Shown here: piece after piece, positions 1 to 30,029 of the stretch | Numbering within the stretch: the first letter of the stretch is position 1 | How the letters are laid out: every line of letters begins with the position of its first letter | Origin: Pyrrhoderma lamaoense | Lineage: Eukaryota; Basidiomycota; Agaricomycetes; Hymenochaetales; Hymenochaetaceae | Reading direction: 5' to 3' | DNA: 64,000 nucleotides | Assembly (NCBI GenBank): GCA_002794735.1 | Contig: NBAZ01000011.1 | Location: 620,001-684,000 of the forward strand | The notes under the pieces: generated by a model | Told to the model about the DNA's origin: nothing | Database searches by the model: none | What the model saw: the letters and a program-made list of their open reading frames with translations, nothing else | Made by a program: the position numbers and the translations under genes

Positions 1-2308
1 GAGCTTCCTTCTCATTTTCTCGGTCAACATAAATCATAGACATGCGCTTCAATTCACTCGAGAATGGGAATTCCACTTTCAAAATAAAGCGTTTCGGCCC
101 GGTTTCGTCGTCTACAAATTGCACTTTCTCAGTAATTACCTCTCTTTCGGGTGCTGAATCTTGTCCGTCGTCCTTTTCCGATTCCTGTGCTATGGATCGT
201 CTACTCAAACCAAGCTTCATGGCAAAAACTTCAAGAGCAACCTCGGTAGGATCACCTGTCGATGTCCATATTCCTCTTAGGTTCTTCCTAACGCTGTCGT
301 ACGCATAAATATATAGAAACAAAATACAGAAAAGCCTTTAGTACTTACGTAGCCACATTACCTGAAGAAGGTCAGCTAAGAATAAGTAAAACTGATTTCA
401 GAACTGTTGCATACATAAAGACGCAGCATATACCGCTCTTTTTAGTGCTACTTCTAGCCTAGTAGGGTCTACTTCAGGGCCGTCATCGTTCTTTCGAATA
501 ATGCCCTTAGGCTCCAATGCGTCGGCACCAGTTTCAGCAGTTAACTCCAATCCAGTAACTGACCCATCGGGAACCCATAATTTCCTCACTGACATTTTTC
601 CTATAATTTAATTTGTAAGTGAGTTATATATCACTGATGACGGCGGGGCATATTTACCGAGGGTCAGAGTTCCGGTCTTGTCGCTACAGATATCCGTAAC
701 GCCACCTAGATTTTCTAGAGCATCAAGTTTGCGGACGATAACGTGTTGATTCGCCATTTTCCGAGTTCCAATAGACATCGTTAGGGTCAGAACGGCGATA
801 AGAGACTCAGGAATAATAGCAACAGCGGTCGCAATAGCATAAAGGGCAACTTCGTTCGTGATATGCCATCGGGACGCGCTAAATACGATAATAGCTAGGA
901 TAAATGCGCAGCCAAATAGGATATAAGCTAACTTCGAAAGCTTCATCTGAAGCGGTGTCCCTCCGTGAAGACCTCTGATAATTATGAGATACAACGTATT
1001 ATATAGCAGTAAAGAAAGGAATACGTACAACCATACTAAAATTTTGATTTTAACTTGGGAAGCAAATCCAGATGTGTCTAAGGAGCTATCGTTAGTCCTT
1101 TTCATGGCTTTAGCGATTTTCCGATCTGATAAATTTTTAAGAATAGTGAGTCGTGATACAAACAGCGATTTCAGTGAGCTTACTTGGGTTTTCATTCCAG
1201 TAGCTATAACGATTCCAGTTCCTCGACCTTTCGTCACAATAGTTGAAGAATAACAAAGGTTTGTTCTATCTCCTATTGGAATATCGATATCTTCTTCGGG
1301 AAAGGCTTCAATAGTTTTCGCAACTAATCCACAGGGTTAGCTATCCATACGCATATTGATTTGGAGGGGTGTAAATACTAACTAGGTAGGGACTCTCCAG
1401 TAAGTAGTTGCTCTGAGACTTCTAAATTCGATATACTCATCAAGCGTAACTGGGAATTAATAAAAGTCAACATAAAATATGGTAGAAATGGTATGTACAT
1501 ACATCTGCTGGAACGACATCTATCATCGTGGATGAAATCTTTAGATGATCTAGTAGCGCAGAGAAAAGAATTGGTGTTTACCTCCGGTCTTGATCATGAC
1601 AATGTCCCTAAAGTGCGATCAAAAACTTATTAAATGGACATTTTAAGCTACTATCACTGTACAGATACCTGGAACGACGTGCTTAGCTGCAACAGTTGTA
1701 CTCTGACCGTTACGGAGTACACATGCTGTTGGTGAAGAAAGCTGGCGTAATGAGTCCATTGTCTTCTCCGCACGATATTCTTGGAAGAATCCAACTCTGT
1801 TTTCCGACTCGTGAGATGACTTGACATTGGAGCGGGATAAATATGACATACCCAGTGTTTATAATAATAATGACGGCGATGACTGATCCCTCGATGAAGT
1901 CCTGAACACCAAAACTCAAAGCCAATGTTGCTAGTAGTACCAATGTCAGAGCATTTGCTATCAACCACTGATAAGTATAAAAAATTCTCATTTAGCTAGT
2001 GAATAACACTTACCAACTTGGCGCAACAAGACAGAGATAACAGATACTCCACTTTCTCCCTCAAGGACGTTTTCCCCATAAGACTCTAGCCGTCTTACAG
2101 CTTCGTTCTTTGTCAAACCATCATTCTTTGCTGTCCCTAACTCGACAAGTATATCAGATACTGTGGTGATATGAGCTCTTGGGATAAGTTCAGTAAAGTC
2201 ATGGCATTGCGGTGGCACAGATACTGTTTGTGTCGTGTTTGTACGACTTCCAAGGGGTACACCTCCATGCTTTGCTTTCTCGGTCTTGTTAAAAAGTTGT
2301 AAAGGCAT
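1..2308 (-). CDS. P-type cation-transporting ATPase, ENA (type IID) like, 3' part outside window
   Basis: An ATP-driven cation pump, probably of the fungal Na+/K+ efflux (ENA) type, in the plasma or an internal membrane. Visible in order: an N-terminal cation-ATPase segment starting MPLQLFNKTE (start codon at 2308); two TM helices around ALTLVLLATLALSFGVQ and SVIAVIIIINTG; the actuator stretch VGFFQEYRAEKTMDSLRQLS; the TGES loop (LLTGESLPS, about 1390-1420); further TM helices; and the phosphorylation motif CSDKTGTLTLG (about 650-690). Short introns interrupt it, for example before KMSVRKLWVPDG. The nucleotide-binding half and C-terminal helices lie beyond base 1, so the gene is truncated by the window and not by mutation. 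The QEYRAEKT and DKTGTLTLGK stretches fit ENA better than SERCA or SPCA, but I cannot exclude another type-II pump. Its promoter must lie in 2309-2932. Confidence 0.85.
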
Positions 2309-2932
2309 GGTCGTGAGCTAGTTCAGATCTTGAACATTGCCTTTCACATTTCTTTGCACGCCTACTGTATTTATATTCCTTCAGCTCTTCGATAAAGTCT
2401 TAGAGTTTCTTGGAAGCCGGTACTTTAAGTATGGATTACAAGAAATTGCACCCTTACTTTTGATATGGCAAGAATTGGGATGACGGAACATTGTCTTAAT
2501 AATCCTTAATCAATTTGAATGAATCTAAACGAATCCAAGTCTTTTCGACGAGAGGGCCTGAGTACTTAAGTAGATTCAGCGCGTTATAAGATGCAGAGCA
2601 TAAAGTAAAGGCAGTTTGCAGTCCATTTACCTTGCAGTCAGATGTTCCGGATGATATAGGTGCACGTCTTGGCTTCAGGGGATGAAAGGTGCCAAGGAAA
2701 AAATAAGATTCTTGTCTAAAAACCAAACTTGAAATGTACTCTTGGCCAAGAGCTTAGGGGCTTTGGTTGTATCAATTACGTCGTCGAATAAAAGTTCTAC
2801 TCCATGCTGGGAATGAAACAAACATGCTAGAGCTCTTCCACTTCGTGGCCGTTGAAGTAATTAGATATTAAAATGTAAAAATACTAATACAGAAAGCTTG
2901 CAAGATAGAAAAACCAAAACAAGAAATGAGAG
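2309..2932. other. Intergenic region between RPB7 and the ATPase
   Basis: AT-rich spacer of about 620 bases. It should hold the 3' end signals of RPB7 and the promoter of the ATPase, both on the minus strand. A 76-codon open frame at 2496-2726 shows no recognisable family and no supporting exon partners, so I leave it uncalled. Confidence 0.4.
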
Positions 2933-5597: not shown

Positions 5598-6287
5598 ATG
5601 ACCAGTCTAGTAAGGCGCTACACTCAGAACAGATCTATCCTGGCTAGCCTCACTCTAGCTTTCACTCTACTGAATTTCTCGTCCTTTATATTACCATACT
5701 TTGCGTCCGGTTTTAAATGTGAGTTGTAAGTCTCCCAGTGGAATGTACTCCTTACATTTGTCTGGGACAGCTATAAAGGTGGCAGAACTATGGACTGTCC
5801 CAGGCCTACGTAGGGCAGCTCTCACTCCAGAAGAAAGTGTGCATTATCGATTGGATACAGTAGCTGGAGCCGCTGAATGGCAAGCTAGTCAGCCCCGTGG
5901 AAGGGGCGTTGTCTTTCCATACGGTGATACCGAACCTTATAGGATAACTATGTTTCATCAGGTCTGCTTGGCTTGATCTCATCATTATTCGGAAAGTCTA
6001 AGTATGAAATACCCTAGCTCGACTGTCTTGCAACTTTACGAGACGAACTAGTTGCTCGTGGGGAAGATCCAGCTACTCCTCCTACGTCACGCGCTCACTT
6101 TTGCCTTAACTATATGCGCGAGACTTTGACTTGCCAGGCAGATAGTCACCTTGAGATGGTAAGGTCAGAGTACGGAGGGCGAGCAGTACTACCGTATACT
6201 ACCCGCACAGATTGTATGGATTGGGAGCAAGTTTGGAAATCTGCTGAAAAGGAATTCGATAGATGGGTGAAAGTAGAAAGTGTCTAA
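5598..6287 (+). CDS. UstYa-like (DUF3328) protein with degenerate His motifs
   Basis: A 193-residue protein in three exons (5598-5718, 5771-5961, 6018-6287). UstYa-family proteins are membrane-anchored oxidases that oxidise or cyclise peptides in dikaritin RiPP pathways and also occur in other fungal secondary-metabolite clusters. Residues about 14-36 form one TM helix near the N-terminus, as usual. The central and C-terminal landmarks are present: MFHQLDC (residues 102-107), HFCLNYMRETLTCQADSHLE (131 onward), and DCMDWEQVW near the end. The family normally carries two H-x-x-H-C motifs. Here the first reads HQLDC (second His replaced by Asp) and the second RAHFC, so both are altered. This resembles a divergent or non-catalytic partner. 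No frame break is seen. It is the left edge of the possible peptide-biosynthesis block. Confidence 0.82.
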
Positions 6288-6433
6288 ACGGTTGTCCTTA
6301 TTATGAGTACTAACAGTCTAGGCTTTCCGTTAGGGTCACCTTTACATTTAGAGTCAATTTGAATACATCCCATAAAAAATAAGAATATAACAATATGCTA
6401 AAATAGTACATATACAGAACACAAGAAAACAGT

Positions 6434-7866
6434 CTAAAGCACTCGGCTTGTCTCGACAGTTTGAGTTACTCGTATCTATCGTTTTGCGTAAGATTTATGA
6501 AATAGGATTTATGTTGCAAAACTTACACGTTTGTGCATTTCAAGGTTTTCTGCGTAGGTCATATCTTCTCCAATGTCTATCGGATCTCCATGGCTTCTTC
6601 CGGATTCAAGATCCTCCGTGTCTTCTGGTATTTTGCCTTCACCGTCAAATGGCTGATACTTTTTCGTGGGATCGAAATCTGAATCCGTAATATCGCTAGA
6701 TGAAACAGTTGTATCCGTCATGCTATCTTTAGTTGCCGCAAAACTGCTGAGCGTGAAGACTGGACGAGGAGGACGAGAATTATTACGGCGCATAGGACTG
6801 CGCACGTAAGCACTGGACCCGTTTGAGCGGTGACCACGATCTTTTCCAGCTGCAAAAGTGGAAAGCACTTCTCCCGACGCATATTCCACGGCATCCGTGC
6901 TGAGACCGAGACCTACACGAACAATAATCAAAGAAAAAACGATACCGATCATCTGTGTTACAGCATCAAGCATTATGTACTGTGCAAAGCTCCCGGAGAG
7001 GTAAAGACTCAGAAGTATGATTAAGCAAGCAGAATAGATACTTCCGGATTCAATAATGATCATTGCGCAGGGAAAACACTCTTTGTCGACGTATTGGCTA
7101 AGGCAGCTGACATACGTCTATGCACATAGAGAATACGAGCGGCAATAAGAATTGTGCATGAAAAGTTGGTAAAGAGGGTTAAAGAAAAGAATGACACTAT
7201 CCAATCCTGTAGCTCTGTGATAAAGACAGGAGCCTCCGGAGAGGCTCGAGCAAAAGCCTGGAGAGCACCAATACCAACGCCAATAGAAGCAATAAAACAA
7301 ATAAGGATAGGAAAACAGATCCTCTTGTCTCCACCCCAGATGAGATACAGGCGATACCACTAGAAACATCTCATTAGCATATAGCTAATACTCTAAGCTG
7401 AAGGCCTCACCATAAATCCATCACCAACTAGTGTTTGCATACAATAGGCAGTGCTCTTTAATGAGTATATTGCGGTGTTAACTTCAGAGAAATACTTGAC
7501 AGCATCAGACTGTTCAAGATAAGCAATCATAACCCGCTTAAGATCACTACCTGTAGGAGAATAAGGTGCATAACGTATCCCACACAAGGTCAACTTTGGT
7601 GACAGTTTATACATACCAACATGAACTGTTGCCAATACGAACATAACACAGGAAACGACTAACATGGGGCGATTTACCGGTTCCCGCTTGGAGCGACGTC
7701 TATGTATCAAGACATAGATCTAAAATTTCTTCATACTTAATGACTATTCTCAACGCTTGATATGTAAAAGACTCACCGAAACAGAGAAAAGAAAGGCGAA
7801 GAAACCATATAAGATACACTCAGTGAAGAGAGAAACAATCGACACAGCGTCAATGCCAATAGTCAT
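6434..7866 (-). CDS. Multi-pass (about 7TM) membrane protein of unknown function, basidiomycete family
   Basis: A polytopic membrane protein of a family common in Agaricomycetes but without a known role. Exon order from the start at 7866: MTIGIDAVSIVSLFTECILY, then an FFAFLFSVS helix, IHRRRSKREPVNRPMLVVSC (cytoplasmic loop and next helix), YSLKSTAYCMQTLVGDGFMV, a helix around YRLYLIWGGDKRICFPILI, IVSFFSLTLFTNFSCTILI, then SIYSACLIILLSLYLSGSFA and TQMIGIVFSLIIVRVGLGL. A hydrophilic, Ser-rich cytosolic tail follows. The reading frame runs on to a TAA at 6509. A good donor just upstream (GTAAGT after HKR) joins instead to a last exon IRVTQTVETSRVL ending at 6434, which I prefer because the tail matches what I recall of this family. 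I cannot assign a ligand or substrate. Confidence 0.65.
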
Positions 7867-8952
7867 TGAGGCAACAGCTTGGACGTGGTGGTAAAGCTCA
7901 AAGGAAACAGGGACGAAGTAGTACACCGAAATTATAGCAGATTAGTCTGGGCGCCGTTTATTTTATTACGGTAAAGGGAAGCCATTGCCGATGAGAGTGG
8001 GATTCTCATTATAACCGCGGAACTATCTCATCAGACCGAGAAATCATTTGATGCTCTGCTATACTGAACAGTCCAATCTACTTTGATGGCATCATTGCAT
8101 TGTCACTCAAATTCGCATCTTTAAACCTTTTTTCGGATTTGTAGACCAACATAAGACCTCTTCATGTGTATGTACCAGGCACCCCATTCCTATCTAGTCA
8201 TGTTCCTCCATATTGATGAGTGTTCTAGTGTCAATAACTTGAGCGTAATCTACTATATAATGTGATTGGAAATGTGTCTCCAAGTGCTATATAAACAGAT
8301 GAGTTAACAGAGACGAACTATGCTACATGTTAGCAGTTACACCACACAAGGTGAAGTATTTATAGACTCCGCTCCGTTATTCTCGACCATAACTTCCCTT
8401 TATAGAATTGCGGCTAGCTCCATGTGTATGAACATGAGTCAAAAGATTTATTTGATTAAATATCCAACTGTCATTGGTTGTAAACTTTCCATGCCAGTAG
8501 AAAGAAAATCAAACGTGTGTGAGTGAGTTTCATGTCTTCTAATTCCCAGTGCTGATGCGCACCATAACAACTTAGATTTTGAATTTAAGATTTGAGTACT
8601 GATAAAGGTACCCATCGACAAGGCGGACATAAGTCGCTGTCCGCCTGATATTGTAGTGCTGATGACACCTTCCGTTCCTTATGATATTCATATAAGAATC
8701 ATATGAGGATAGGAGGTGTATCTAGTTTTCGTTGAGGACACTACTCAATCTAGTATAAAACAGGAGTCTATAGTTTATTATCAGATCTTACTACGATGTA
8801 CTATTTGATGATAGCGCCTTGTGTGTGACCATGTAATATTTTATATGGGCGTGATTCACAATTGTTGATAATAGATAATTATCTTTACCTCTATAATTAG
8901 AATATATGTTTCACGAATAGATTTGGTATAGCGCCCTATAGTATAACTTGCT
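7867..8952. other. Intergenic region, nothing recognised
   Basis: About 1.1 kb, AT-rich, between the 7TM gene start and the MFS gene end. Two overlapping short frames (8320-8526 plus, 8448-8630 minus) show no family resemblance or coding bias that I can see. It should hold the promoter of the 7TM gene. Confidence 0.4.
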
Positions 8953-11151
8953 CTAGACTTCTATCATTTTTGGGGCCCTACCGATGCCAATTTTTCCGTT
9001 TCCTTTGACTTCGATCGTCTGTTCAAGCCGCCCGCTATTGCTAATGCGAGGGCGCTCACACACATAGAGACCTATACGCGATATAATCGGGATTACGTGG
9101 TCGTACATAGTATAGGAAACGATTAGAATAATGCCAAAAAGTGGAGAAAATAGATGATACAAACACCGCAGAATGAGGCAGGTTTTAACCAGTTTTCATG
9201 ACCTTCAGAACCAAGAAGAGCTCCAGTAATAGGAGGGCCTAGAAAAGACGATAAACTGTTAGATGGTTGTACCTCAAGCATCCGAGAGAGACACAATGCT
9301 ATGAGCAGAAAAAGGTAGCTCTATCTAAAGTTGAAGTAGTATGGGATAGAAGCTGTAGAGCGATGCATACCAATCAAACTTCCAATACCTAAATAAATTA
9401 GTAGGTCAGTGTCTATTACTGCCTAAAGCCTCTGCATCGACTCACCTCCAATGCCAAAGCATACGCCAATGCGTGCTCTACATGAACGTGATTAAAAAAC
9501 TTGTAGGCCAAAGAAGCCATCAAAATACGAACCCAACCTCGGATACGTTCCGAGATAAGTTAGCTAACATTGGTCCGAGGAGCGAGATACCTGATCACCA
9601 CATGCTTTATCGTAAACGAGATCCGAGCGCAGGATAAAATCGGATATACCCACAAGCACCAGAAAAGAAGCCACACAAGATGGACATAACTACCGCTCCC
9701 ACTGGTCCATTGACAGCCGCAGACAGACAGAAGATCAGGATACCGCATGCTGCCGTACAAGGCACGATTACAGTGAAGACACCCGTACGGTCGACGATCA
9801 GTGTTGGTAGGATACGTCCGAAAGCACTTGCAGCATTCAAAATAGCAATCTAAGGGGAGAGGGTCATTCCTTTATACATTTTCCATTGATAATTCCACTT
9901 ACAGTGTAAAAAGCTAGTGTAACACTAACACCGCGTCTAACTGCCTCTAATTGAATGTAGAATGTAGGGAAAAAAACACCAACAACAAGAAGGAAAGTTC
10001 CTATACACGCCACGGCGTATGTCTCATCTTTAAAAAACTCACGCCAATATGCGACTCGACCTACGAATCCCTTTGATTCTTGAGGTGGTAGACGAGTTCG
10101 CATCATTACATTTGCCGCAGCAAGTAAGACTAAATTCATAAACGCTGATGCTCGTACTCCCCATGCAAAGCCAACTTTACCATGTATGAGTTGGTTAAGC
10201 ATTATCGGGTGTATGATGCCACCGAGAGATGATGCTGACGCAACAATACCCATAACAAGTGATCTTCGCCGTTTGAAATGATGGGCAACGACCCCTAGCG
10301 CTGGAACATAAGTAGATCCAATGCTTATACCAAGTCCAATGCCCTGTGCTAAAAAGAGCTTCATATGTAGTTAGTGGCTTTGACATGTGAATATGCAGTC
10401 AGTTTATTGTCAATTACCTGATACCAGTGATTAGGCTGACAAATTGATATCATAAAAAGGCAAAAAACAAAAAGTATAGAGCCTGCAAACATAACATGAT
10501 GGCTACTTTGAATGTGATTGTCTGTTCGAGAGAACGACGTTACGCCACTTACAAGTATCCAATATCCATAGCATAACCCGAAAATATGCCAATGCTGAAG
10601 AGACAGAATGTCTGAGCGCTCCCTATCCAGCTATCTCATTGGCTAAATAACATATTCTGCACTGAGTATGGGAAGTGAATTGCTTACCTAATTTGCGATG
10701 TAGAAAAAGACGTGAGGAATTCGCGAACGTAAAAATCTGTTATGGGAAAGGCTAAGTAAAACACAAATAGCGACTGAATGAAAGGAATTTACCTTCGTAT
10801 ACACCGAAGCTATTCACGTAACTACTTTTCCTGAGTACGCCTCTGCGAAAAATATGTGATTTTATACTTACCCTGACGTGCAAAATACAATAATATAACT
10901 GGCCCAGACCTTTAACGATTCATAGATAATAACATACTGCCTAATTTGACTCACGCTCCAGCTAAGGTGCTCCATGCTTTTAGACCACCATCGAGAACTT
11001 CCGTGGCTTGAATATTCGCCTTATTGTCATTTTCACTACTACATTCCTTCACAATGCCATCACTGATGTGATGACCTTTTTCTAGCTCAGCGGGTACCTC
11101 TTTCTCCAGAGATTCTCGACGGGATCCAGAGGCCTTGTCGTGGTGCACCAT
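8953..11151 (-). CDS. MFS transporter, monocarboxylate-permease (MCT) type
   Basis: A 12-helix major facilitator of the fungal monocarboxylate-transporter-like group, plasma membrane. The start at 11151 gives a hydrophilic, charged N-terminal tail (MVHHDKASGSRRESLEKEV) ending in LDGGLKAWSTLAG, the family's usual lead-in to TM1. Clear landmarks are GIGLGISIGSTYVPALGVVA, HFKRRRSLVMGIVASASSLGG (the loop 4-5 signature with Arg/Lys), WREFFKDETYAVACIGTFLL, and NAASAFGRILPTLIVDRTG with SILCGFFSGACGYI in the second half. At least nine introns cut it up, and some exon edges between 10400 and 10900 and the last exon (stop at 8953) are only approximate. The substrate is unknown. Lying between two UstYa genes and beside a repeat precursor, it could export or import a pathway product or precursor; that is inference only. 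Confidence 0.78.
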
Positions 11152-11661
11152 TTTACAGAGTGTGAGTAGCGTCGTAGGAGCAAAAGCTGCTATCTATCCA
11201 GAGGTCAGTCACTTCAACATTCTATTAAATACCCGACTGAAGTTCCTTGATGTGCGGTAGAATGATCTATTTTGAGTTCGGAGATTCCAATGAGACGGCA
11301 CTTAGTTATCCTACTCAAATATGCGTATTACAATTTATGTGCACAGGGGCATGAGATTATGGCCTGTCGTCTCGTATGAATCGACACTAACTAGCATTAT
11401 ACAGATCGAAGAGGTTGGAGTTGGTCAAACTACAGTTTAACAGTTACTCATTGCTAAGAGTTATCGCTTACATAATACATGTACTTCTATTGCGATGATT
11501 TTCATGCTGTAGCATATTGATCAATTTACATCACCGCGGCCGCATTTGACCATGGGCTTTCCATAAACCTCATGACATTCATAATAACCAATATCAACAC
11601 AGCTTCGGAAAACGATAAGTAGAAAGAGGGAATTAGATGGGACTAATGACTACTAGGTCCC
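11152..11661. other. Intergenic region between repeat precursor and MFS gene
   Basis: About 510 bases, AT-rich. It should hold the MFS promoter and the 3' end of the precursor gene. A NotI-like GCGGCCGC block lies near 11537. No gene recognised. Confidence 0.4.
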
Positions 11662-11675
11662 TCAGAAAGACTCTT

Positions 11676-12300
11676 CTAATTCGGCACGGCGGAATGATTC
11701 CTCAAGTTCTGCCCGGGTCTGAATGCCTGTTCAAGTTCGGCTTTTATTGTAAAGTAAGTTTCGAACTCCTTATGTATAAAAACCAGATTTACCTCGCTTA
11801 AAAGACTCCTCAAGATCAGCACGCGGTTTGAAACTTTGCTCAAGTTCTTCACGACGGAAGGATTCTTCTAACTCTTCTCTTCTCTTGAATGACTGTTCAA
11901 GTTCATTTCGTCGGAAGGACTCCTCTAATTCAGCTCGTGCCTTGAACGACTGCTCCAACTCGGAACGACGGAAAGATTCTTCTAATTCTGCTCGTGGCTT
12001 GAATAACTGTTCGAGTTCAGCACGGCGGAAAGATTCCTCTAGCTCGGAACGACGGAATGATTCTTCAAGCTCTGTTCTTGGCTTAAAAGACTGCTCTAGC
12101 TCTGACCTACGGTACCCAATCTCAAGGGGCTCTGCTAGTGCAATGCCGTTTAGTCAGTGCATCCCTGACTATTTTAAATAAGTATCCATACCGCGCTTAA
12201 AGCTCTGTTCAAGTTCCTTTGCTTCAGGAGCAGGTACTGCTACAGCGATAATGGATGGGACAAATGCAAATGCTGCTATGAGGAGCTTGAAGAAGTTCAT
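11676..12300 (-). CDS. Secreted Kex2-punctuated repeat precursor (candidate RiPP / KEP precursor)
   Basis: Predicted secreted precursor of about 170 residues in three exons (12192-12300, 11793-12134, 11676-11740). Residues 1-21 are a clean signal peptide (MNFFKLLIAAFAFVPSIIAVA). The rest is almost entirely a tandem of 9-10 residue units of the form x-E-L-E-(E/Q)-S-F, each closed by RR, KR, KPR or KAR. The first mature unit differs: AEPLEIGY followed by RR, the only one with Tyr and Ile. Kex2 in the Golgi cuts after KR and RR, so multiple copies of a short acidic peptide ending in Phe should be released. This is the layout of KEP proteins and dikaritin RiPP precursors. In exon 3 the repeat frame is lost after FRP by one base at the CCCGGG near 11712-11717. 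In the repeat-preserving frame the stop would be at 11662. UstYa-family genes lie on both sides. The final function is unknown; a plain secreted structural or signalling peptide is possible. Confidence 0.72.
11765..12128 (-). repeat. Tandem coding repeat, about 27-30 nt units in 57-nt pairs
   Basis: Inside the precursor gene the DNA repeats in units of 27-30 nt, organised as a higher-order pair of about 57 nt. One unit codes ELEESFRR and its neighbour ELEQSFKPR or a variant. The start of each unit varies most (S, T, A, N or E before ELE) while ELE and SF are nearly fixed. This points to array growth by unequal crossing-over plus selection on the peptide core. Confidence 0.85.
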
Positions 12301-13486
12301 AACGTATATCTTTGATAAATCAAAAATTTAACCAGAAGTTATAATAGAGGTAAAAATGAGAGGTTGGGCTGTATAGTAAAAAACGATCTCCTTTTCTACT
12401 TTTTCTACGTCTCGCTTTTTGTCCCTCCAATGCTATCGCTACATTCAAATTTCAAAATCGCACACATTTAACTGTGTCACGAGAGTTCTTTTGATCAATA
12501 GAACCTCATTGCGCTTGTACTTCTTTCCGTGGTGAATGAACCCTCGAGCTTTGTGAGTTCATCTATCATGTAAATCACTTGGCCCACGCTAATATAAATT
12601 TTCTTCTTACATCACCAAAAGGAAATCCACATTTGATGATGCGACTCAATCAGTTCCTTGTAATTTTAGGGGTTCACCCGGAGATTTGAACCGGATTAAA
12701 GGTCATAGTACTCGAAAAATGCATATGGCCATGTTGCCTCATGATGATTATTCATAGTGCGGGCATGTCGTGAGGAAAATATTTAACATCGTTTTCGCGA
12801 AATAAAATGTCTTGCGATATCGCTTTCTAGCACAATGAGATAAAACAATAAAAAACACAGAAGTTGCTGAGTTTTTATGCCGAACGCTAAAATCAACCTC
12901 TATACTTGGCTCTCTAAGGGCCTCGTGAGAAACCATGTGTCCGCTTTTTTGCCTAAGGTTGTGAAGTGCATTACATACAGACATTATAGAATTCCGCACA
13001 ACTAGGAATTATTTTAAGCCAGTGAATCCAATTCCTGAATCTCTTGTATTTTGATCAGAATTTCAACAACTCTTTGGGCTATTTATGCACTGCCTTGGAG
13101 TAACGCTTGAATTGAGCGTATGATGTCTTTAAGGAGGATGAGTCTAGTTCCTTGTGATACCATACATTTCTATCTTTTATCTCACGAAAACCAGGGGTTT
13201 TACTGATAAGGGAGAAGTCAAAGATTATGAGAAGCATTACAACTAACCGCTCACTGTAGAAGAACTGGATACGAGGGCGCGCGAGTTTGACGCCATAGTA
13301 AAGTGGAGACATGTTGCCTACCACAGACTTCTTTTTCTCATTAATTTGATTTCGGGAATGCATCGGATCAGTCGTTGGTTTAACTTCCGGTTCACAAGTT
13401 GAGACGCTGATAGAGAAGCACTTTTAGCACGAGTTTAAGCAAGTTACAGGATAATCCGTCTTCTGAGTTTCCCAAGTGCTGCTAGC
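12301..13486. promoter_or_regulatory. Divergent promoter region between repeat precursor and UstYa-like gene 2
   Basis: About 1.2 kb between two genes transcribed outward: the repeat precursor (minus) and a canonical UstYa-like gene (plus). It must hold both promoters and could coordinate them. Minus-strand frames at 12748-12999 and 13079-13363 carry no recognisable domain and were not called. Pyrimidine-rich stretches near 12390-12430 lie upstream of the precursor start. Confidence 0.5.
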
Positions 13487-14398
13487 ATGGCTAGCATTAA
13501 TCGTCAATCTATCCTTAACCTATCTGTAGTTATCAGTCTCCTGCTAAACTTCGTACTGTTTTGTGTTCGAGTTTACTCAGGTTCAGCGTATTTAAGGGGC
13601 CCTGCGCCGGAGTATCTGAAGGATCAATATCAGTATAGTATGTATACAAAATCTTTTGAGATGATATGCGATTTCATTCAGAGTGATTTTCAAAATAGCA
13701 TATACAGGAGACGATTATCCAGAGCACTTGCCGTTACCCTCAGCACCCTTGACACAGATTCGAGTCTTTAATCTCTCCCCTTCCAATTTTCCTATCTCAG
13801 GTCCCGAGGCAGATGCGCAATGGAGTTCAATATATCCACCTGGATATGGATTTGTGCGTCTTTCATCAAGTCTACCCCAACTGAAGATAGGAATGGCGCG
13901 ACAGATAATCGTCTACTGTGCACTGCTCTTTATCACCAGCTTCATTGCATACAAAAGATGGCGATGTTCTTGAACGATCCCGTAGCATACAGAAAGATAC
14001 TTGGTGTCGGTGAGTTTTCCAGTTTGTTCTTATGATTAGCTGCTCAACCGCATACAAGAACATCAACAACATTGTCTCAACTACCTGAGACAAACTACGC
14101 TATGCCGTTCCGATCTTACTCTTGAGCGCTTTGACGAGCTAGAATCCCAAATTTTTCTATAGCAAGTTTAAGAGCTACTCTAGAACCACGCGAAGATGGC
14201 TATGCTGATTTTAGCAGGTCTATAGATTTGTCAGTCGCTAGTGGGAGACAAATTGTTCGTGTTTGCAGTGATGCCCAGATCCTATATAATACTGCCGGAA
14301 GGAACTATATTGAGTGGAAATCTGGTTGGAATATTAGTTCTCCGTTTGAAGGTGCACATGGGCAATACGGGCACAACGGCAAAACTTTCAGACTTTAG
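13487..14398 (+). CDS. UstYa-like (DUF3328) oxidase, canonical HxxHC motifs
   Basis: Membrane-anchored UstYa-family protein, the type of enzyme that oxidatively modifies peptides released from dikaritin precursors. Exons 13487-13637, 13708-14009 and 14059-14398. The N-terminus has one TM helix (LSVVISLLLNFVLFCVRV), then GPAPEYL, a luminal part with PISGPEADAQWSSIYPPG and YGFVRL, then YHQLHCIQKMAMF (first HxxHC) and EHQQHCLNYLRQTTLCRSD (second HxxHC), and IVRVCSDAQILYN near the end. Both His motifs are intact, unlike the paralogue at 5598. As read, the frame slips by one base between YGFVRL and YHQLHC (candidate sites CCCC at 13875-13878 or GG at 13890-13891) and again at the T-run 14152-14156. 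Both are homopolymer positions, so I treat them as probable sequencing errors. The gene ends only 93 bases from the convergent RidA gene. Confidence 0.8.
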
Positions 14399-14491
14399 AA
14401 TATCAAACCCAGTTATTTCTTGTGCACATATACAAAATAATAAATTTGGTGATTGCGAAACACTCTCGTAAAATACAAATAAGTCAAAACA

Positions 14492-14996
14492 TCAGTTACC
14501 CGGGATTTCAGCAATACATTCTATCTCAAAGTCAGCTCCAAGCGGGAGGGAAGCCTGAGTAGATTATAAGCAGATAAAAAAGGTTTAATTCACGAAAAAT
14601 AGCTTACTACTCCAACGCATGTGCGTGCCGGCATTCTGTCTTTATCAAAAAATTGGATATAGATCTCATTCATAGGACCAAAGTCACGATCCATGTTTCG
14701 TAGATAGCAGTTCGCCTTGACAATATGTTCCAAACCAGATCCTGCTGCTTTAAGCACCTTTTCCATGTTTTCTAAAGCTGTCCTCTGGTGAGATTCAGTA
14801 TCAACATAGATAAACTCCTAATTGAGATAAAAGATACAAGTCTTACCGTTTGTGCCTGCACTCCGCCAGGAACTATTGTTTTAAGATCATGCAAAACTCC
14901 GATGTTCCCAGAAACATAGACATAACCTCGAGAGATAGTCGCCTGAGAGAAGACAGGCATTGGCGGGACCGCCTCTGGAGTGTAGACAACTTTCAT
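14492..14996 (-). CDS. RidA (YjgF/YER057c/UK114) family enamine/imine deaminase
   Basis: Small soluble protein of the RidA superfamily, which hydrolyses reactive enamine/imine intermediates. Some members in biosynthetic clusters act as tailoring or cyclising factors. It starts MKVVYTPEAVPPMPVFSQAT, then SRGYVYVSGNIGV, GGVQAQT, TALENMEKVLKAAGSGLEH, VKANCYLRNM, the signature MPARTCVGV with the conserved Arg, and ASLPLGADFEIECIAEIPGN. Two introns are present (between AQT and RTALEN, and after CVGV). Length (about 125-130 residues) is normal and the fold looks complete. It converges on UstYa-like gene 2 with a very short gap and shares a 160-base divergent spacer with the gene at 15157. Membership of the neighbouring biosynthetic block is possible but not shown. 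Confidence 0.88.
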
Positions 14997-15156: not shown

Positions 15157-16220
15157 ATGAGATTAACTTCTCCGTCATCATCAGATAGCTCTTCAACTGA
15201 TGTAGAACGATACTCACTGCTCCCAATCCGGGACTCTGAGTCTCCAGAACAAGCATTAAAGTACTACGAAGATTCTAGTGCCAGTGAGTCAAATCTCTTG
15301 ACTTCTAATGAAACTGAATTACTGAATATCTGACTAGAAGCTACGCACAAGGACAAAGCGCCAGTCTGGCTTCAGCTGTGCGCCTTAGGGGCGATTCTCC
15401 TTGCATTCCTATCGGTATTGTTCCCATTCTCCCGCGGAAACCCGGTACCATCATATTCGAATGTAGTTTCTCAACCCGCCTTCACTTCACGAGCGGATCG
15501 CCTTGCTTACGCAGCTTCTCTTCCCCGACCCAATCCTTACATCGGGCTTGACCGACTTAACTCTTCCATATCTCAAGCGACGCTTCCTCGCGCGCTCCCC
15601 ATTTTCCCACACGTCTTCGCACCAGTTTCTCGATCCGAGCCGCAAAAAGTATATCCCACCGACGGACGAGCAAGACGTACTTTCAATGGCGTTGTCAGCC
15701 CAGGTGAACCTCATGTCATTATTAACAAAGATGTGAGCATCATTGTTTTTTTAATTTTTCATGTTTCCTTATCAACAAGAAATTAACTACTTCTTTTTAG
15801 GTAAGTATGATAATGCAAGTTCGAGTTCAGGATCATAATCTCGGACGCTGCACTATATCCGCCCTGCTTCCTCTCGCTTCTTCATCCGAATTGGCGGAGC
15901 AGAATCGTTCTCTCTTCCTTGGATCATCTGCATTTACCCTTGATGTCTGGTTATTGGACGCGGATAAAGAACTTGATCTTCCTAACCTCTCCTGGTTGAC
16001 GAGACCTCCTCGCACTTCCCTATTAAGTAAGTTGGATATACAGGAGGGAGGAGATTCTCGTACTACGGAATGGAACTGCGGTGCTGTTGGATCGCTAAAG
16101 ACGTATGAAATCGCTTGTCCTCCGAGTGGTGGGGACGAGTGTCATTTAGATTTCTGGCAGGAGCAACCAGAAGTTATTCCTCGAACGGCATTTGTTGTTG
16201 TTCAGAAACCCTCTATATAG
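15157..16220 (+). CDS. Single-pass membrane protein of unknown function
   Basis: Three exons. The short N-terminus is acidic and Ser-rich (SSSDSSSTDVERYSLLPI). One TM helix follows (WLQLCALGAILLAFLSVLF). After it comes a large, probably extracytoplasmic domain with RPNPYIGLDRL, HVFAPVSRSEPQKVYPTDG, NKD joined over an intron to VSMIMQVRVQDHNLGRC, WLLDADKELDLPNLSW, and a C-terminal WNCGAVGSLKTYEIACP with several Cys. I recall similar type-II single-pass proteins as abundant hypotheticals in Agaricomycetes, possibly related to But2-type C-terminal domains, but cannot name a function. The first intron acceptor is the AG before CTACGCAC, which keeps the frame. Nothing links it to the peptide block other than sharing a divergent promoter with RidA. 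Confidence 0.7.
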
Positions 16221-23669: not shown

Positions 23670-26600
23670 ATGCTAACTCCAGAGGCTGGGAAGTTGCTTT
23701 ATATTCCACCATTACTCTCGGCAGTTTCTTTCGCCTACATCTCCTGTGTCCTTTTTTATCGCTATTTTTTCATAGCCAAGCCAAAAGACCAAGTGCAGTG
23801 TTTAACACTTCTTAGGAACCTTCATGACCTATTGAAGGAGGTGGATGGCTTAGCTATACTATCGTTCAGGTGCTTGAGACTTGCATGCACACTGGTATTA
23901 CTTTCGTTGGAATTGTACAGATGGAATGGAGGTCAAACCTCTGAAGCATGCATCTATCAGATACTTTTCTGGGTGAGTTCTATTCGCATAGTCATTTTTG
24001 ATAATAAAATCCTGAACTCTTGCGTTTATTCTTGAATGCAGTTCTACGCTTCAGTCTTGTCAATGTTGACCACTTTCTCCCCTGTACCTTGGAGAGACAT
24101 TATTTCGAGACAGTTGGCTATTCTTCTTTTCTCAGAGTTTGTCGTCTTTTTCGTTCTTGATGTATGGCCATATGCGACACTCTATCTGGAACCTTTCGAC
24201 CCCCTTTCTAATCCATTAACATGGGTCAGACTGTCTTTAATTACTCTTGGTGGTCTGGTGATCCCACTTGTGATGCCACGACCTTTTCGGGCAACAGCTG
24301 TCAATGACCGACCTAGCGCCCAGAAAACCGCAAGTTTGCTATCTCGTTATAGCTATAGCTATCTGGATCCAATAGTATACCATGCATTCCGGGTTCCAGA
24401 TATTAAAATTGAGGATATGCCACAGATACCAGGTGAGGGAAGAATAGAGGTCCTTGCTAAGCGTGCCTTGGACGCTCTCGACCCGGTAAAAGTTGGGAAG
24501 AGACATATGTTCTGGGGTACTTGGGAAACTTGGAGGAAGGACTACATTGGTGTTCTAGTCTGGCTTGGAGTACAGGCTTTGACTGAGTTTATAGGACCAT
24601 TTGGCACTCAGAACCTATTAAAGTACACTTTATATTACATTTCTCCGGGTTAGAGATATCTGATGGCTCTGTAGGTATTTAGAATCTGGTGCCCATCCAT
24701 TTAATCTGAAGCCGTGGATATGGATTGTGGTTCTTACTGCTGGCCCGGTCATAGCTGGTTGTTGCTCTACTCAATACTTGTTCATAGGTGTACGTTTATT
24801 ACACTCCTTTATTGTGCGCATTTGTTGAAGGTGTTATATTAGACCCGAATCTTCGTAGAGCAGCAAAGTGTTCTATCCTATGTCATTTTCCATCACGCTC
24901 TCCGAATTCGGATGAAGAGTACCATTGAAGCAGAGGAAGACAAGACAAAGAAGGCTGAGCCATCCAGAGAGCCATCTACGACAACTCAGTCGTCAGCCTC
25001 AACTACTGATGTGTCGGAATCTGAGGTATCAGACACAGAGTCAACAGCCGTTGATGACTCGTCAGAAGAGACCATAGTAGCTGAAAAGAGTAACAAGCCA
25101 AAGGCTGATCACCTTCTAGGAAAGATAAACAACTTGTTAACGACCGACCTGAACGCAATATCGAACTCGTATAATAATCTAACACTGAGTATGGTCAACA
25201 GCAACTTGTAGGGAAATAACTTTAATGATAGTCCTCTTCCTTAGGTGCCACAGTTATACAGTTTATCTTATCGATCTATTATCTGTACATCCTGGTTGGT
25301 TGGAGGTAATTGGGTTTAACTTGGTTTTGCACTCTTCGCTGACATCTTTATTTTTAGTTCTCTCGTTGGCTTGACCGTGATGATCATCTTATCCCCTGCC
25401 CCCGCTTTTATGGGTAAACAAATGGTAAAGATACAACAAGTGAAAATGAAATTTGTACGCCTTTCCTTTCTTTTTTTAAACCTCAGCTATTCATCGTTTG
25501 TAATACTAGACCGACAAGCGAGTTCAGGCGGTGACAGAAGGTAAGAGTCATTTCACACCTCGCCTTATAATCTAATGTTTTATATCACTAATAATACGTA
25601 TTAGCGCTGGGAATTCTGAGAATGATCAAGCTCTTTGGCTGGGAACCTTATATGATGAAGCAGCTTGCTCAAAGGCGTGGTGAAGAGTTGCGAGAATTGA
25701 AAAAATTCAGGATTTTCCAAGCTTTACTCAACGTCTCGAACTCCTTGATCCCTTTACTCGGAAAAATCAGTGTCATTTCTGTATATGTGAGTAATTCCGT
25801 GGTGATGTTGTTATTATCCGTAATGATATATGAATTTGATGTTCGGTATCTGTAGACCCTTGTTTCTAAGGGTGACTTGGAGGCGTCCAGAATATTTACT
25901 GCACTCATGGTACGTGGTTTTTCTGGCTATCATATCTTATTCCTGAGACCAATGGTTTCATTTAACATATCATAGATTTTCTCCATGATGGAAGAGCAGT
26001 TGTTCGGGATTATGTATGCAATCCCGGGTTTTTTGAGGGGTAAGGACTTTGGAAATAAAATAAAATTAGCAACTATATTAACTAAGACCTGCTAAAGCCA
26101 AGGTTTCGTTTGATCGGTTCACTGAATTTTTAAATACGGTTGGCTTCTCTTGATTGATCTGACTTATATCTAGTACTGTACTAACTCAAAGAGAATTTCT
26201 ATTTGTTTCCTTGCAGACGGAACTCATCAGTGAAGGGAACTCTTCGGAGACTTTCAAATGTCCTGAAGAACATGCTCGTAGTATAGGCTTCAAATCGTGT
26301 TCCTTCTCATGGGAAGCTTTCGATGACAGTCTAGAAGGGAATGGCAAATCGCCAGAAAGAAGTCGGCGGTCCAAATCTCGAAAGAAATTCTGTCTACGTA
26401 TAGATGATCAGCTTCTCTTCAAACGGGATCATATCAACATCATTGTTGGTCCAACTGCGTCTGGAAAGGTATTTTACATAGATGAATGAATGAAGGCATA
26501 TGTGATTCTCATTAGACATTATCTAGACATCTATTCTTATGGCTCTTCTCGGAGAGATGTACTATAAACCTCATGGTCCTGATTCTTGGTACAACCTGCC

Positions 26601-29600
26601 CCGGGAAGAGGGGATTGCATATGCACCTCAAGAGAGCTGGGTACTGAATAGGACTATTAAGGTATAGTTTGTCCGAGTCGGAAATCGTCAGAATAATCAT
26701 GACAAACACAAATTCATATAGGATAATATCATTTTCGGAGAGCCATTCAATGAAGATCGTTACAAAAAAGGTAATGGTTCCTTCATGATGCAATAAAGTA
26801 GATTTAACTCATCACCATATGATGCAGTTCTCTATCAGTGTGCATTGGAGAAAGACTTGGACTTATGGGAAGCTAGAGATCTTACCGAAGTTGGAGAAAA
26901 AGGTCTTACCTTAAGGTTTGAACATCATCATACCGTAAACAAAGTCATACAACTAACGAACAATTCTTTGATTAGTGGTGGCCAAAAGGTCAGATTCATC
27001 TCTAACAACGTTGAGCTATGTGTTGATAATTTTTATTAAGGCACGAGTTACTTTAGCGCGCGCACTGTACTCATCATCATCTATCATTCTCCTTGACGAT
27101 GTTTTAGCTGCGCTTGACGTTCATACTTCAAAATGGATTATCGATAAAGCTCTTTCTGGAGAGCTTGTGAAAGGGCGTACAGTGATCCTTGTCACACACA
27201 ATATTGCATTGGCAGCGCCGATTGCTGCTTATGTCGTTGTTCTCAGCAGGAATGGTTCAATCTCAGCCCAGGGCTCTGTTTCTGATGTACTTCAGACAGT
27301 CACGTCTCTCCGTACACAAATGGAGAAAGAAATAGAAGAAGAGACCGAGAACATTGAGCTTGAGATAGAAGAAAATGGTAAAGACAAGGAGGAAACCAAA
27401 ACTGACACTGTTGATGCAAAGAAGTCGACAGGAAAGCTTGTTCTAGAAGAGGAGAAAGCTATGGGCCGCGTTGAACTGAAAGCAATAATGTTATACGTTA
27501 GCAGTGTTGGGGGCTCTTTAATTTGGGCCGTGATTTTAGGCTCTAGATTGGCAGAACAAACTTTCCAGTTAATGCAAAGTTGGTTTGTCGGATATTGGTC
27601 AAATCAGTATGCAACTCATCCGGCCTCTGAGATCCCGGTGGTCAGGTCAGTTGTACCAATGGAAACTCGATTATATATGTTCCAACCGTAATTCTAGATA
27701 TGTCATCCTGTTTGCACTTGCAAGCATCGCAAGTTGCTCCACTGACTTTGGCGCTTCGTTGTTCTGGGTGTACAAAACAAATCGAGCATCAAAAATTATT
27801 CATGATCAATTGATAAAAAGTGTTTTTACATCCACCTTCAGGTCTGTCATATACTTCTATCCTCTGTCTATTTTCTTACTGTCTCTCATAGATGGCTAGA
27901 TATAACACCCGTGGGGAGAATTACTACAAGGTTTGAATTAGTTTATTCTCCTTTTCAGCTCGTAGCTCATGGTGCTGACACGTTCATGGAAGATGTACAC
28001 AGGATATGAATACTATCGATGACCAACTCTCTTTGTTTGCAAGGATGTTCATATCAATTACAATTAATCTCATATGCCTCTTCTTCTCTTCGGTTGTCAT
28101 GGCTGGTTGGTATGCTTTAATATCGGGTCTCACTGTCTTTATACTCGGTGGAACTTTGGGCAGAATATACCTAAAGTGTCAGATCAGTACTAGAAGAGAA
28201 ATGAGGTGTGTACTTCTTTCTGAATAGTAATACATGGTTCATGAACATGGTTCTAGTAATGCTAAAGCCCCTGTAATGACACTCGTCGGAACAGCCTTGG
28301 CGGGGCTCTGTAAGTACTACTCACCGTACGGGTTGACCTATCTAATTCTCGATAACTAGCTACAATACGAGCATATGGAGCGCAAACTGCTTTCAGTGAC
28401 GAACTAAAGGAGAAAATCGATATCCTATCACGCTCATCTTACTGCTTCTACGACATCAATCGTTGGGTCTCGATTCGTATGGATACCCTAGGATCTATTT
28501 TCTCTTGTATTGTCGCTTCCTACCTTGTGTTTAGTGGGAAATTGGAAGCAGGTTTTGCTGGGTTTACTATTTCTGTCGTATTATCCTTTTCCCGTATGAT
28601 CTTATATTGGATACGCATCTATAACTTGCTAGAGATTCAGGGTATGTTTGAACTTATTAATGCCGTGTGCAAACACTTAAAATCTTTCCTTCTTAGCTAA
28701 TAGGTAAGTTACTACGAAAGTTACTCCTTAAGCGCGTTGTTTTTAACTGATCTTACCTACACCTGAAGTCTTGAAAGAATGCTTGATTTCATGCGGATCG
28801 ATCATGAGCCAGAGGCCACTGAAAATGGAAAACCCCCAGCATACTGGCCTTCTAGCGGCGATCTTAGGGCTGAGAAGCTTAGCGCAAGATATTCTGACGG
28901 TAAGCGATTTTGATTCTATAGATTATAACCGAATCCTAGGTAGCTGATTTTCATCGTTAGATTCACCTGAAATTTTACGTGAACTCGACTTCCATATTAA
29001 ATCCGGTGAAAGAGTGGGAGTTGGTAGGTATAGTACATATATCTCGTATTTCAGCCGGTTAATTAGCATTATATTTTTTATCTTCTAGTCGGAAGAACTG
29101 GTGCAGGTCTGTATTTTCTATTACAATTATTCACTCGGCCTTGTTGCTTACGTAAATTATATTTCATTTTAGGCAAGTCTAGTATTGCCTTGGCGTTGCT
29201 GCGTGCTATCAAAACCACCGGAAAGGTGTACTATGATGGGATTGCGACAGATGAGATCAATTTGGATGCCTTGAGAACAAATATTACTCTGATACCGCAG
29301 CAGCCCGAATTGATCCATGGAAGTCTCCGGGAAAACCTGGATCCCCTTCAACTTCATGATGATGCGACTTTGTATGATGCATTAAACAGCTCAGGTTTTT
29401 ACAGTATCAAAGAACTAGAGACAAAGAAGGGTGAATCTAGTGCTTCTACATCACATGCTGCACATGACGCACCTGCAGAAGGCAGTACTGAACATAGAAA
29501 TGAACATGAGCACGAATCTAAAGTCGACCTCGATACAATGGTAGAAAGTGGAGGCACGAACTTCTCCCTTGGACAGCGGCAAATAATCGCACTCGCTCGG

Positions 29601-30029
29601 GCTATAGTGAGAAGGAGTAAACTCATCATCTTGGACGAAGCTACGGCGGCCATAGGTAAGCAACGGATTTGATGAATAATGTATGTTACTTAACTCCATT
29701 TCCTCTCTAGATTACGATACAGACGCGGCTATACAGAAGACACTGCGTTCGGAGTTCAGTAAAGACACGACACTTATTACAATAGCCCATCGCCTACAAA
29801 CCATTATTGATTATGACAAGATTGTGAGAGCACTTTTAATTGTGAATGTCTATCCGGAGGCCTAATAATTCTATAGATGGTTCTAGATGCGGGCCAAATT
29901 GTAGAATTTGATCAGCCAGCGCGACTTCTTGAAAATGAGAATGGACATTTCCGTGCACTAATTGACGGCAGCGAAGAACGAGAATTACTGCGAGGAATGG
30001 CTGCTGAAGCAAAGAAAGTCGTAGTGTAG
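23670..30029 (+). CDS. ABCC (MRP/YCF1-like) ABC transporter, full length
   Basis: Full-size ABC exporter with TMD-NBD-TMD-NBD order, over many short introns. An N-terminal hydrophobic extension ([16 protein letters not shown]...) precedes TMD1 with [20 protein letters not shown], typical of ABCC proteins. NBD1: Walker [19 protein letters not shown] (split by an intron after GK), Q-loop [12 protein letters not shown], signature [17 protein letters not shown], Walker [13 protein letters not shown], and the H-loop VTHN. TMD2 follows a Lys/Glu-rich linker. NBD2: Walker [20 protein letters not shown]-loop [18 protein letters not shown], signature [19 protein letters not shown], Walker [14 protein letters not shown]-loop IAHRL, and tail [15 protein letters not shown]. 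As in many ABCC proteins, NBD1 has D after Walker B (degenerate) and NBD2 has the catalytic E. An acidic, Ser-rich insert (about 24910-25120) sits in TMD1. It probably exports conjugates or xenobiotics. No frame break found. Confidence 0.88.

What the first reader, a model, noticed from the sequence alone, without database searches (positions are those of the whole stretch)
5598..14996. Candidate undescribed dikaritin-type RiPP locus in a basidiomycete
Seen: a signal-peptide protein made of about 14 Kex2-bounded repeats (11676-12300), two UstYa/DUF3328 genes (5598, 13487), an MFS transporter (8953-11151) and a RidA-family gene (14492) within 9.4 kb. Known: dikaritin pathways (ustiloxin, asperipin, phomopsin types) combine a Kex2-processed repeat precursor with UstY-family oxidases that cyclise the released cores. 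Inference: this block makes a modified peptide from the x-ELE(E/Q)SF core. I do not recognise the core, and few basidiomycete cases are worked out. The 7TM gene between may be a bystander.
Basis: partly seen in the sequence, partly recalled or inferred. Interest (0 to 1): 0.88.

Follow-up and report, generated by a model that had tools for sequence, protein, structure and literature searches.

The report
Fungal locus for modified repeat peptides
A mushroom-group fungus carries a gene for a secreted protein made of about 14 near-identical short peptides beside a pair of copper-oxidase-like genes, one of which belongs to a conserved branch that has lost most of its metal-binding residues, so the block may make an undescribed modified peptide with a two-part enzyme.

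Summary
On the minus strand, 12300-11676, lies a three-exon, 171-aa protein with a signal peptide (by eye) and 14 in-frame units: 13 x-(E/D)LE(E/Q)(S/L/A)F plus AEPLEIGY. Among the 13, synonymous change is near saturation but amino-acid change is low. It starts 1.19 kb from a divergent canonical UstYa gene (UstYa-2, 13487-14398); UstYa-1 is at 5598-6287. Nine of 14 units end in a clean dibasic site; four end in KPR/KAR, so 17-mers as well as 7-mers are expected.

The precursor had no relative in a capped search of 5.8 billion proteins, and no second copy was found in its own genome. UstYa-1 belongs to a conserved Agaricomycete branch (49 rows examined) that has lost three of four copper-binding histidines but keeps both cysteines. 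Elsewhere in this genome the same kind of pair, plus a But2-like membrane protein (here 15157-16220), recurs in one duplicated cassette where no repeat precursor was found.

So the pair plus But2-like gene looks like an old module, with this precursor beside one copy. I favour a dikaritin-like pathway, possibly with a victorin-like Leu-Phe cross-link, about 50%. Product, modification and co-expression are unshown. DUF3328 genes near basidiomycete repeat precursors are already in print.

The parts
11676..12300 (-). Repeat precursor gene (KEP): exons 12300-12192, 12134-11793, 11740-11676; signal peptide (by eye) plus 14 in-frame units
   Evidence: no homolog at E <= 10 in a capped search; no second copy found in the genome
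11662..11712 (-). Two further repeat units (AELEESF-RR, AELEESF) lying in another frame than the modelled last exon; described only
   Evidence: the interruption may be an assembly error, by analogy with UstYa-2
13487..14398 (+). UstYa-2: canonical UstYa/DUF3328 protein, HQLHC and HQQHC motifs; window copy interrupted twice in frame
   Evidence: an intact version exists as P0001
5598..6287 (+). UstYa-1: exons 5598-5718, 5771-5961, 6018-6287; UstYa family protein with degenerate copper motifs (HQLDC; RAHFC)
   Evidence: (P0012 differs at 1 of 193 residues)
15157..16220 (+). But2-like membrane protein (one TM segment by eye, weak PF09792 domain; exon model approximate); matches in this genome lie only beside UstYa pairs
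8953..11151 (-).
   Evidence: MFS_1 43 bits for 9864-10370
6509..7945 (-).
14492..14996 (-). RidA/L-PSP family gene; probably housekeeping
   Evidence: none noticed by eye in the C5 cassettes, not searched there

Best explanation
A basidiomycete locus that works like a dikaritin pathway. The precursor enters the secretory pathway and is cut by Kex2-type proteases at RR/KR (strong) and perhaps KPR/KAR (weak), giving xELE(E/Q)SF 7-mers and 17-mers. UstYa-2, anchored in the membrane with its copper site in the lumen, oxidises the core; UstYa-1, which has lost most copper ligands, is its non-catalytic or substrate-holding partner, perhaps in a heterodimer; the But2-like membrane protein assists. 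The likeliest chemistry is a cross-link between the C-terminal aromatic residue (Phe, or Tyr in one unit) and the internal Leu, both kept in every unit, as in victorin. Shown: the genes, the repeat constraint, conservation of the degenerate UstYa branch, and recurrence of the three-gene cassette in this genome. Inferred: cleavage, topology, the partnership, the modification, and that the precursor is the substrate.
For: Repeat cores constrained at protein level: pN 0.13 against pS 1.06 over core positions 2-7, 13 units; all 13 have L, E and F at the same places, and AEPLEIGY keeps L-E-x-x-aromatic. Precursor and UstYa-2 starts are 1,187 bp apart and divergent. Two independent UstYa-1-type/UstYa-2-type/But2-like cassettes in this genome. 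UstYa-2 keeps all four His, the motif that CctR needs (PMC12435403, passages read). The degenerate branch is a supported group (46 rows, 100/97); a helical hairpin carrying the altered motifs is predicted (mean pLDDT 80.2, pTM 0.59). Kexin-type P-domain hits are present in the genome. UstYa and UstYb are both needed for ustiloxin (PMC6514808, passages read); victorin is cyclised between C-terminal Phe and an internal Leu (PMC9233826, passages read).
Against: No repeat precursor was found in the nine scanned stretches near the other UstYa genes, so the module can probably exist without one. Agaricomycete KEP peptides reported in PMC9769878 are linear and minimally modified, and only 103 of 1680 (6.1%) Basidiomycota KEPs have DUF3328 genes nearby (PMC7329392). 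No Tyr in 13 of 14 cores. Tyrosinase hits lie on another contig only and no S41 peptidase was found. No shared promoter words above background. UstYa-1 is separated from the precursor by two unrelated-looking genes. No expression data for the precursor.
Confidence: 0.5

Rival explanations
1. The repeat protein is an ordinary Kex2-processed repeat protein that releases linear acidic peptides (signal, surface or defence peptides); the UstYa/But2 module next door acts on another substrate and the adjacency is incidental.
For: KEP peptides detected in four Agaricomycete species were linear and minimally modified (PMC9769878, abstract); the module occurs on C5 with no precursor found nearby; 13 of 14 cores lack Tyr.
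Against: Divergent neighbours 1.19 kb apart, about 0.004 expected by chance for 5.3 precursors (rough); UstYa hits lie at only three independent places in this genome.
Confidence: 0.35
2. Both UstYa genes and the But2-like protein form a module acting on a core from elsewhere (an unlinked precursor or another metabolite), and the local repeat gene is a recent arrival that uses it occasionally.
For: The degenerate branch gave 49 hits while the precursor gave none in the same database; the two UstYa kinds sit on apparently shared contigs in two other assemblies.
Against: No other substrate gene was recognised in the scanned flanks of about 14-15 kb, though only repeat precursors were looked for.
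Confidence: 0.1
3. The repeat is not a peptide precursor but a secreted structural or coiled-coil-like charged repeat protein.
For: Highly charged, regular 19-residue period; 5 of 14 boundaries lack a clean dibasic site.
Against: Units of 9 and 10 residues do not fit a heptad; signal peptide, Pro in three linkers, and RR/KR after 9 of 14 units fit processing.
Confidence: 0.05

Closest known systems
Dikaritins (ustiloxin, phomopsin, asperipin-2a)
   Same: Signal-peptide precursor with Kex2-type repeats, DUF3328/UstYa genes adjacent, a transporter gene nearby
   Different: Acidic core without Tyr in 13 of 14 units; no tyrosinase or S41 peptidase found in the locus; one UstYa lacks copper ligands; basidiomycete host
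Victorin pathway
   Same: Core ends in Phe with an internal Leu, the pair cross-linked in victorin according to PMC9233826 (passages read; the victorin paper itself was not held)
   Different: The victorin core was not compared letter by letter; no evidence here of chlorination or of any toxin activity
Basidiomycete Kex2-processed repeat proteins (KEPs) with or without DUF3328 (PMC7329392; PMC9769878)
   Same: Architecture and host phylum; 103 of 1680 Basidiomycota KEPs have DUF3328 genes within 15 genes
   Different: Core without a homolog in the search made; accompanying degenerate UstYa branch and But2-like gene, which I did not see described in the listings or in the passages read
CctR and DUF3328 binuclear copper enzymes (PMC12435403)
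   Same: UstYa-2 keeps HxxHC(x)nHxxHC and an N-terminal hydrophobic helix
   Different: UstYa-1 keeps only one of four His; CctR is a homodimer, whereas a heterodimer is proposed here

Membership tests
Dikaritin | Secreted precursor with repeated cores between Kex2 sites | tested here: met
   14 units, 9 with a clean dibasic site; signal peptide judged by eye only, cleavage not shown
Dikaritin | DUF3328/UstYa gene next to the precursor | tested here: met
   UstYa-2 starts 1,187 bp away
Dikaritin | Aromatic residue in the core available for cross-linking, typically Tyr | tested here: inconclusive
   Phe in 13 of 14 and Tyr in 1 of 14 units; 65.6% of DUF3328-linked repeat sequences contain Tyr (PMC7329392)
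Dikaritin | Oxidatively modified, usually macrocyclic product | not testable with these tools
   needs LC-MS/MS
Dikaritin, ustiloxin/phomopsin branch | Tyrosinase and S41 peptidase in the cluster | tested here: not met
   tyrosinase hits only on contig C1; no S41 hit in the genome; both searches go exon by exon. Asperipin's four listed genes include neither (PMC6514808), so this does not exclude dikaritins as a whole
UstYa/DUF3328 copper enzyme, UstYa-2 | HxxHC(x)nHxxHC motif | tested here: met
   HQLHC and HQQHC
UstYa/DUF3328 copper enzyme, UstYa-1 | HxxHC(x)nHxxHC motif | tested here: not met
   HQLDC and RAHFC; same loss across the branch. Still a PF11807 sequence member
Victorin-like | Cross-link between C-terminal Phe and internal Leu | not testable with these tools
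   both residues present in 13 of 13 ELE units (the unit pattern required them, but it left out only AEPLEIGY); the bond itself is inference

The most novel reading that the evidence does not exclude
Mushroom-forming fungi use a two-part UstYa enzyme, one canonical copper subunit and one dedicated subunit that has lost three of four copper ligands, with a But2-like membrane helper, to modify secreted repeat peptides; this locus pairs it with an entirely new acidic core carrying a Leu-Phe cross-link.
Probability: 0.25. Interest if true: 0.75.

Novelty: new variant of a known kind. Interest (0 to 1): 0.52.

Why it matters
In the papers I opened I saw no characterised basidiomycete DUF3328 peptide pathway. 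If the degenerate and canonical UstYa proteins form one enzyme, that would give a reason for UstYa genes coming in pairs in such fungi, and would give genome miners a marker (the degenerate motif plus a But2-like gene) for finding such loci. The predicted masses make it directly testable.

Tried and rejected
Precursor homologs: none at E <= 10 (only the 7,996 candidates sharing most words were scored, and candidate length is limited, so a distant repeat gene in a sister species could be missed). Own genome: beyond the locus only one weak C9 hit with three internal stops (E 0.02); I looked at 400 bases of it and scanned it for repeat precursors without a hit. Collections: no UstYa-2 relative in genome contigs and no UstYa-1 relative in viral contigs. 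Solved structures: no UstYa relative by sequence (three chance-level hits at E 0.6) and no fold match at E <= 0.001 for the UstYa-1 model. The UstYa-2 model was weak (pLDDT 60.6) and I did not use it. Shared promoter words of 10 bases: not above random stretches of the window (for the six pairs 11 to 100 of 100 random draws reached the observed count). The But2 family search of the genome rang nowhere, controls included, so it shows nothing; the three places come from the protein query, whose counts are lower bounds. My first UstYa-2 model bridged two stretches as introns; P0001 is continuous there, so those two 'introns' are artefacts. Synteny in other species could not be tested on DNA. Paper searches: DUF3328 with heterodimer gave none; of 8 papers holding at least two of But2, UstYa and DUF3328, one held But2 and UstYa, once each, and no DUF3328 (PMC5915685, listing only). 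Three listings were cut: 20 of 7,799, 25 of 1,089, 10 of 481. These searches cover the open library only.
Full report
WHAT IS THERE. The window lies in a 30.65-Mb, 72-contig genome, at C11:620001-684000. The named relatives of UstYa-2 come from several Agaricomycete genera: Phellopilus, Amylostereum, Sanghuangporus, Gymnopus, Hermanssonia and Pyrrhoderma. In the tree P0001 groups with the Pyrrhoderma noxium protein P0008 (100/99); Pyrrhoderma and Phellopilus are Hymenochaetales, Amylostereum is Russulales. So the host is probably one of the Hymenochaetales. The precursor is a minus-strand gene of three exons (12300-12192, 12134-11793, 11740-11676; introns of 57 and 52 nt), 171 aa. After a signal-peptide-like start (judged by eye) come KELEQSF, AEPLEIGY and twelve more ELE-type units, 14 in all. 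Two more units lie in another frame at 11712-11662.

BOUNDARIES. Units are of two kinds that mostly alternate. The seven Q units (xELEQ(S/L/A)F) are followed by KR, KPR, KPR, KAR, KRR, KPR and RPG; the six E units (x(E/D)LEESF) by RR five times and KR once. This gives the 57-nt, 19-residue period seen. Clean dibasic sites follow 9 of 14 units (AEPLEIGY included). If KPR and KAR are cut poorly, 17-mers such as SELEQSFKPRTELEESF will be released beside 7-mers. That Kex2 can cut after Pro-Arg in some substrates is recalled.

CONSTRAINT. Between the 13 ELE units, changes at core positions 2-7 are largely synonymous (pS 1.06, pN 0.13), while position 1 varies (pN 0.58, pS 0.74). The pattern that picked the units required L, the second E and F; the printed protein shows that it left out only AEPLEIGY and the tail after RPG, so the contrast is not a product of the choice. 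The pS values are above what a corrected estimate could use, so this is a contrast and not a rate, and the units are not independent.

UNIQUENESS. No protein with E <= 10 was found for the precursor among about 5.8 billion (candidates capped at 7,996), and Pfam gives nothing at E <= 0.1. In its own genome no second copy was found.

THE TWO USTYA GENES. UstYa-2 has HQLHC and HQQHC. The window copy is interrupted twice in frame relative to P0001, a database protein from a 1,534-base contig; 266 of the 267 residues of P0001 lie in exact matches to the window's three frames. So an intact copy exists and the interruptions may be assembly errors. P0001 and P0012 read as spliced proteins, which fits transcripts, but I do not know how they were predicted. 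UstYa-1 has HQLDC and RAHFC: of four expected copper-ligand His it keeps one. P0012 agrees with its three-exon model at 192 of 193 residues. Among 51 UstYa-1-type rows (49 hits, the window and the C5 copy), two (P0058, P0060) fall outside the main branch of the tree. I dropped them; by the printed columns, P0058 has all four His and P0060 two. In the remaining 49 the first His of motif 1 is kept in 48 of 49, the second in 0 of 49; in motif 2 the first His is kept in 0 of 48 and the second in 1 of 48; the Cys are kept in 49 of 49 and 48 of 48. P0012 and P0013 are near-copies of the window and C5 rows and are counted. All 13 UstYa-2-type rows keep the His wherever they have letters (one row lacks motif 1). 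The tree used 61 rows (P0013 and P0057 left out, the window protein standing as P0012); 46 UstYa-1-type rows group with 100/97 support, while the labels as a whole need two changes because P0058 falls with the UstYa-2 side (midpoint root). The UstYa-1 model, from an alignment of 35 of the 49 hits, has two long helices (100-120, 128-148) that carry the altered motifs (mean pLDDT 80.2). In CctR, alanine mutants of the motif His and Cys were inactive and the enzyme works as a homodimer (PMC12435403, passages). Hence UstYa-1 is unlikely to be a normal copper oxidase, yet the branch is conserved, which fits a partner role. The heterodimer is my inference.

THE CASSETTE. The seven UstYa hits in the genome lie at three independent places: this window, contig C5 and contig C6. 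The C5 cassette is present twice, as inverted copies 96.8% identical over 5.9 kb, so I count it once. It holds a degenerate UstYa-1-type gene (39% identical to the window's), a canonical UstYa-2-type gene and a But2-like membrane gene. The But2-like protein query matched only this window and the two C5 copies (lower bound). C6 has a single canonical UstYa. Ten stretches were scanned: the window and nine of 9.5-10 kb covering C5:1034500-1093300 and C6:1187600-1217300, about 14-15 kb beyond the UstYa genes. The only precursor-like repeat between dibasic sites was the one reported, apart from its own antisense frame and a Glu-rich charged protein in L041; a looser period scan also flagged low-complexity stretches in L011, L013, L036, L040 and L041, among them a short KPRQE(V/I) run in L013 that I did not take for a precursor. 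The scan reads stop-to-stop frames and could miss a precursor split by introns.

OTHER SPECIES. Equal contig lengths suggest that UstYa-1-type and UstYa-2-type genes share a contig in Phellopilus (P0002 and P0014, 221,050) and in an unnamed assembly (P0010 and P0029, 72,969). In Amylostereum, Gymnopus, Hermanssonia and Sanghuangporus vaninii, and for a second pair of hits in Phellopilus (P0004, P0048), the two kinds lie on contigs of different length. Contig identity is inferred from length only.

NEIGHBOURS. MFS_1 and L-PSP domains are confirmed; neither is specific to such loci. Tyrosinase hits occur only on C1, S41 peptidase was not found, and kexin P-domain hits occur on C8 and C4.

READING. 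UstYa-2 can be expected to be an active copper enzyme facing the secretory lumen, where Kex2 also acts. Victorin is cyclised between C-terminal Phe and an internal Leu (PMC9233826, passages); here these residues are kept in every ELE unit, which gives a concrete prediction of -2 H per core. Against this stand the linear KEP peptides of Agaricomycetes (PMC9769878, abstract and passages) and the low rate of DUF3328 neighbours in Basidiomycota (103 of 1680; PMC7329392, passages), a rate that also shows that this arrangement as such is not new. I put functional linkage at about one half.

Noticed in passing
L011 4012-9900 and L012 81-5975 (contig C5): Inverted near-duplicate of 5.9 kb, 96.8% identical, carrying the UstYa/But2-like cassette; the UstYa-1-type frame looks interrupted in the L012 copy.
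   Followed up: partly
window 13860-13910 and 14106-14165: Two frame interruptions in UstYa-2 relative to the intact database protein P0001, suggesting small assembly errors in this genome; other frame breaks in the window should be read with that in mind.
   Followed up: partly
window 15157-16220: But2-like membrane protein gene whose matches in this genome lie only next to UstYa pairs (window and the duplicated C5 cassette).
   Followed up: yes
L013 4717-5373 (contig C6): A lone canonical UstYa gene; no degenerate partner or repeat precursor was found nearby.
   Followed up: partly
window 24036-29672: ORFs that look by eye like an ABC transporter of the multidrug type.
   Followed up: no
window 608-2317 (minus): P-type cation ATPase gene (E1-E2_ATPase domain in 608-1336).
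   Followed up: no
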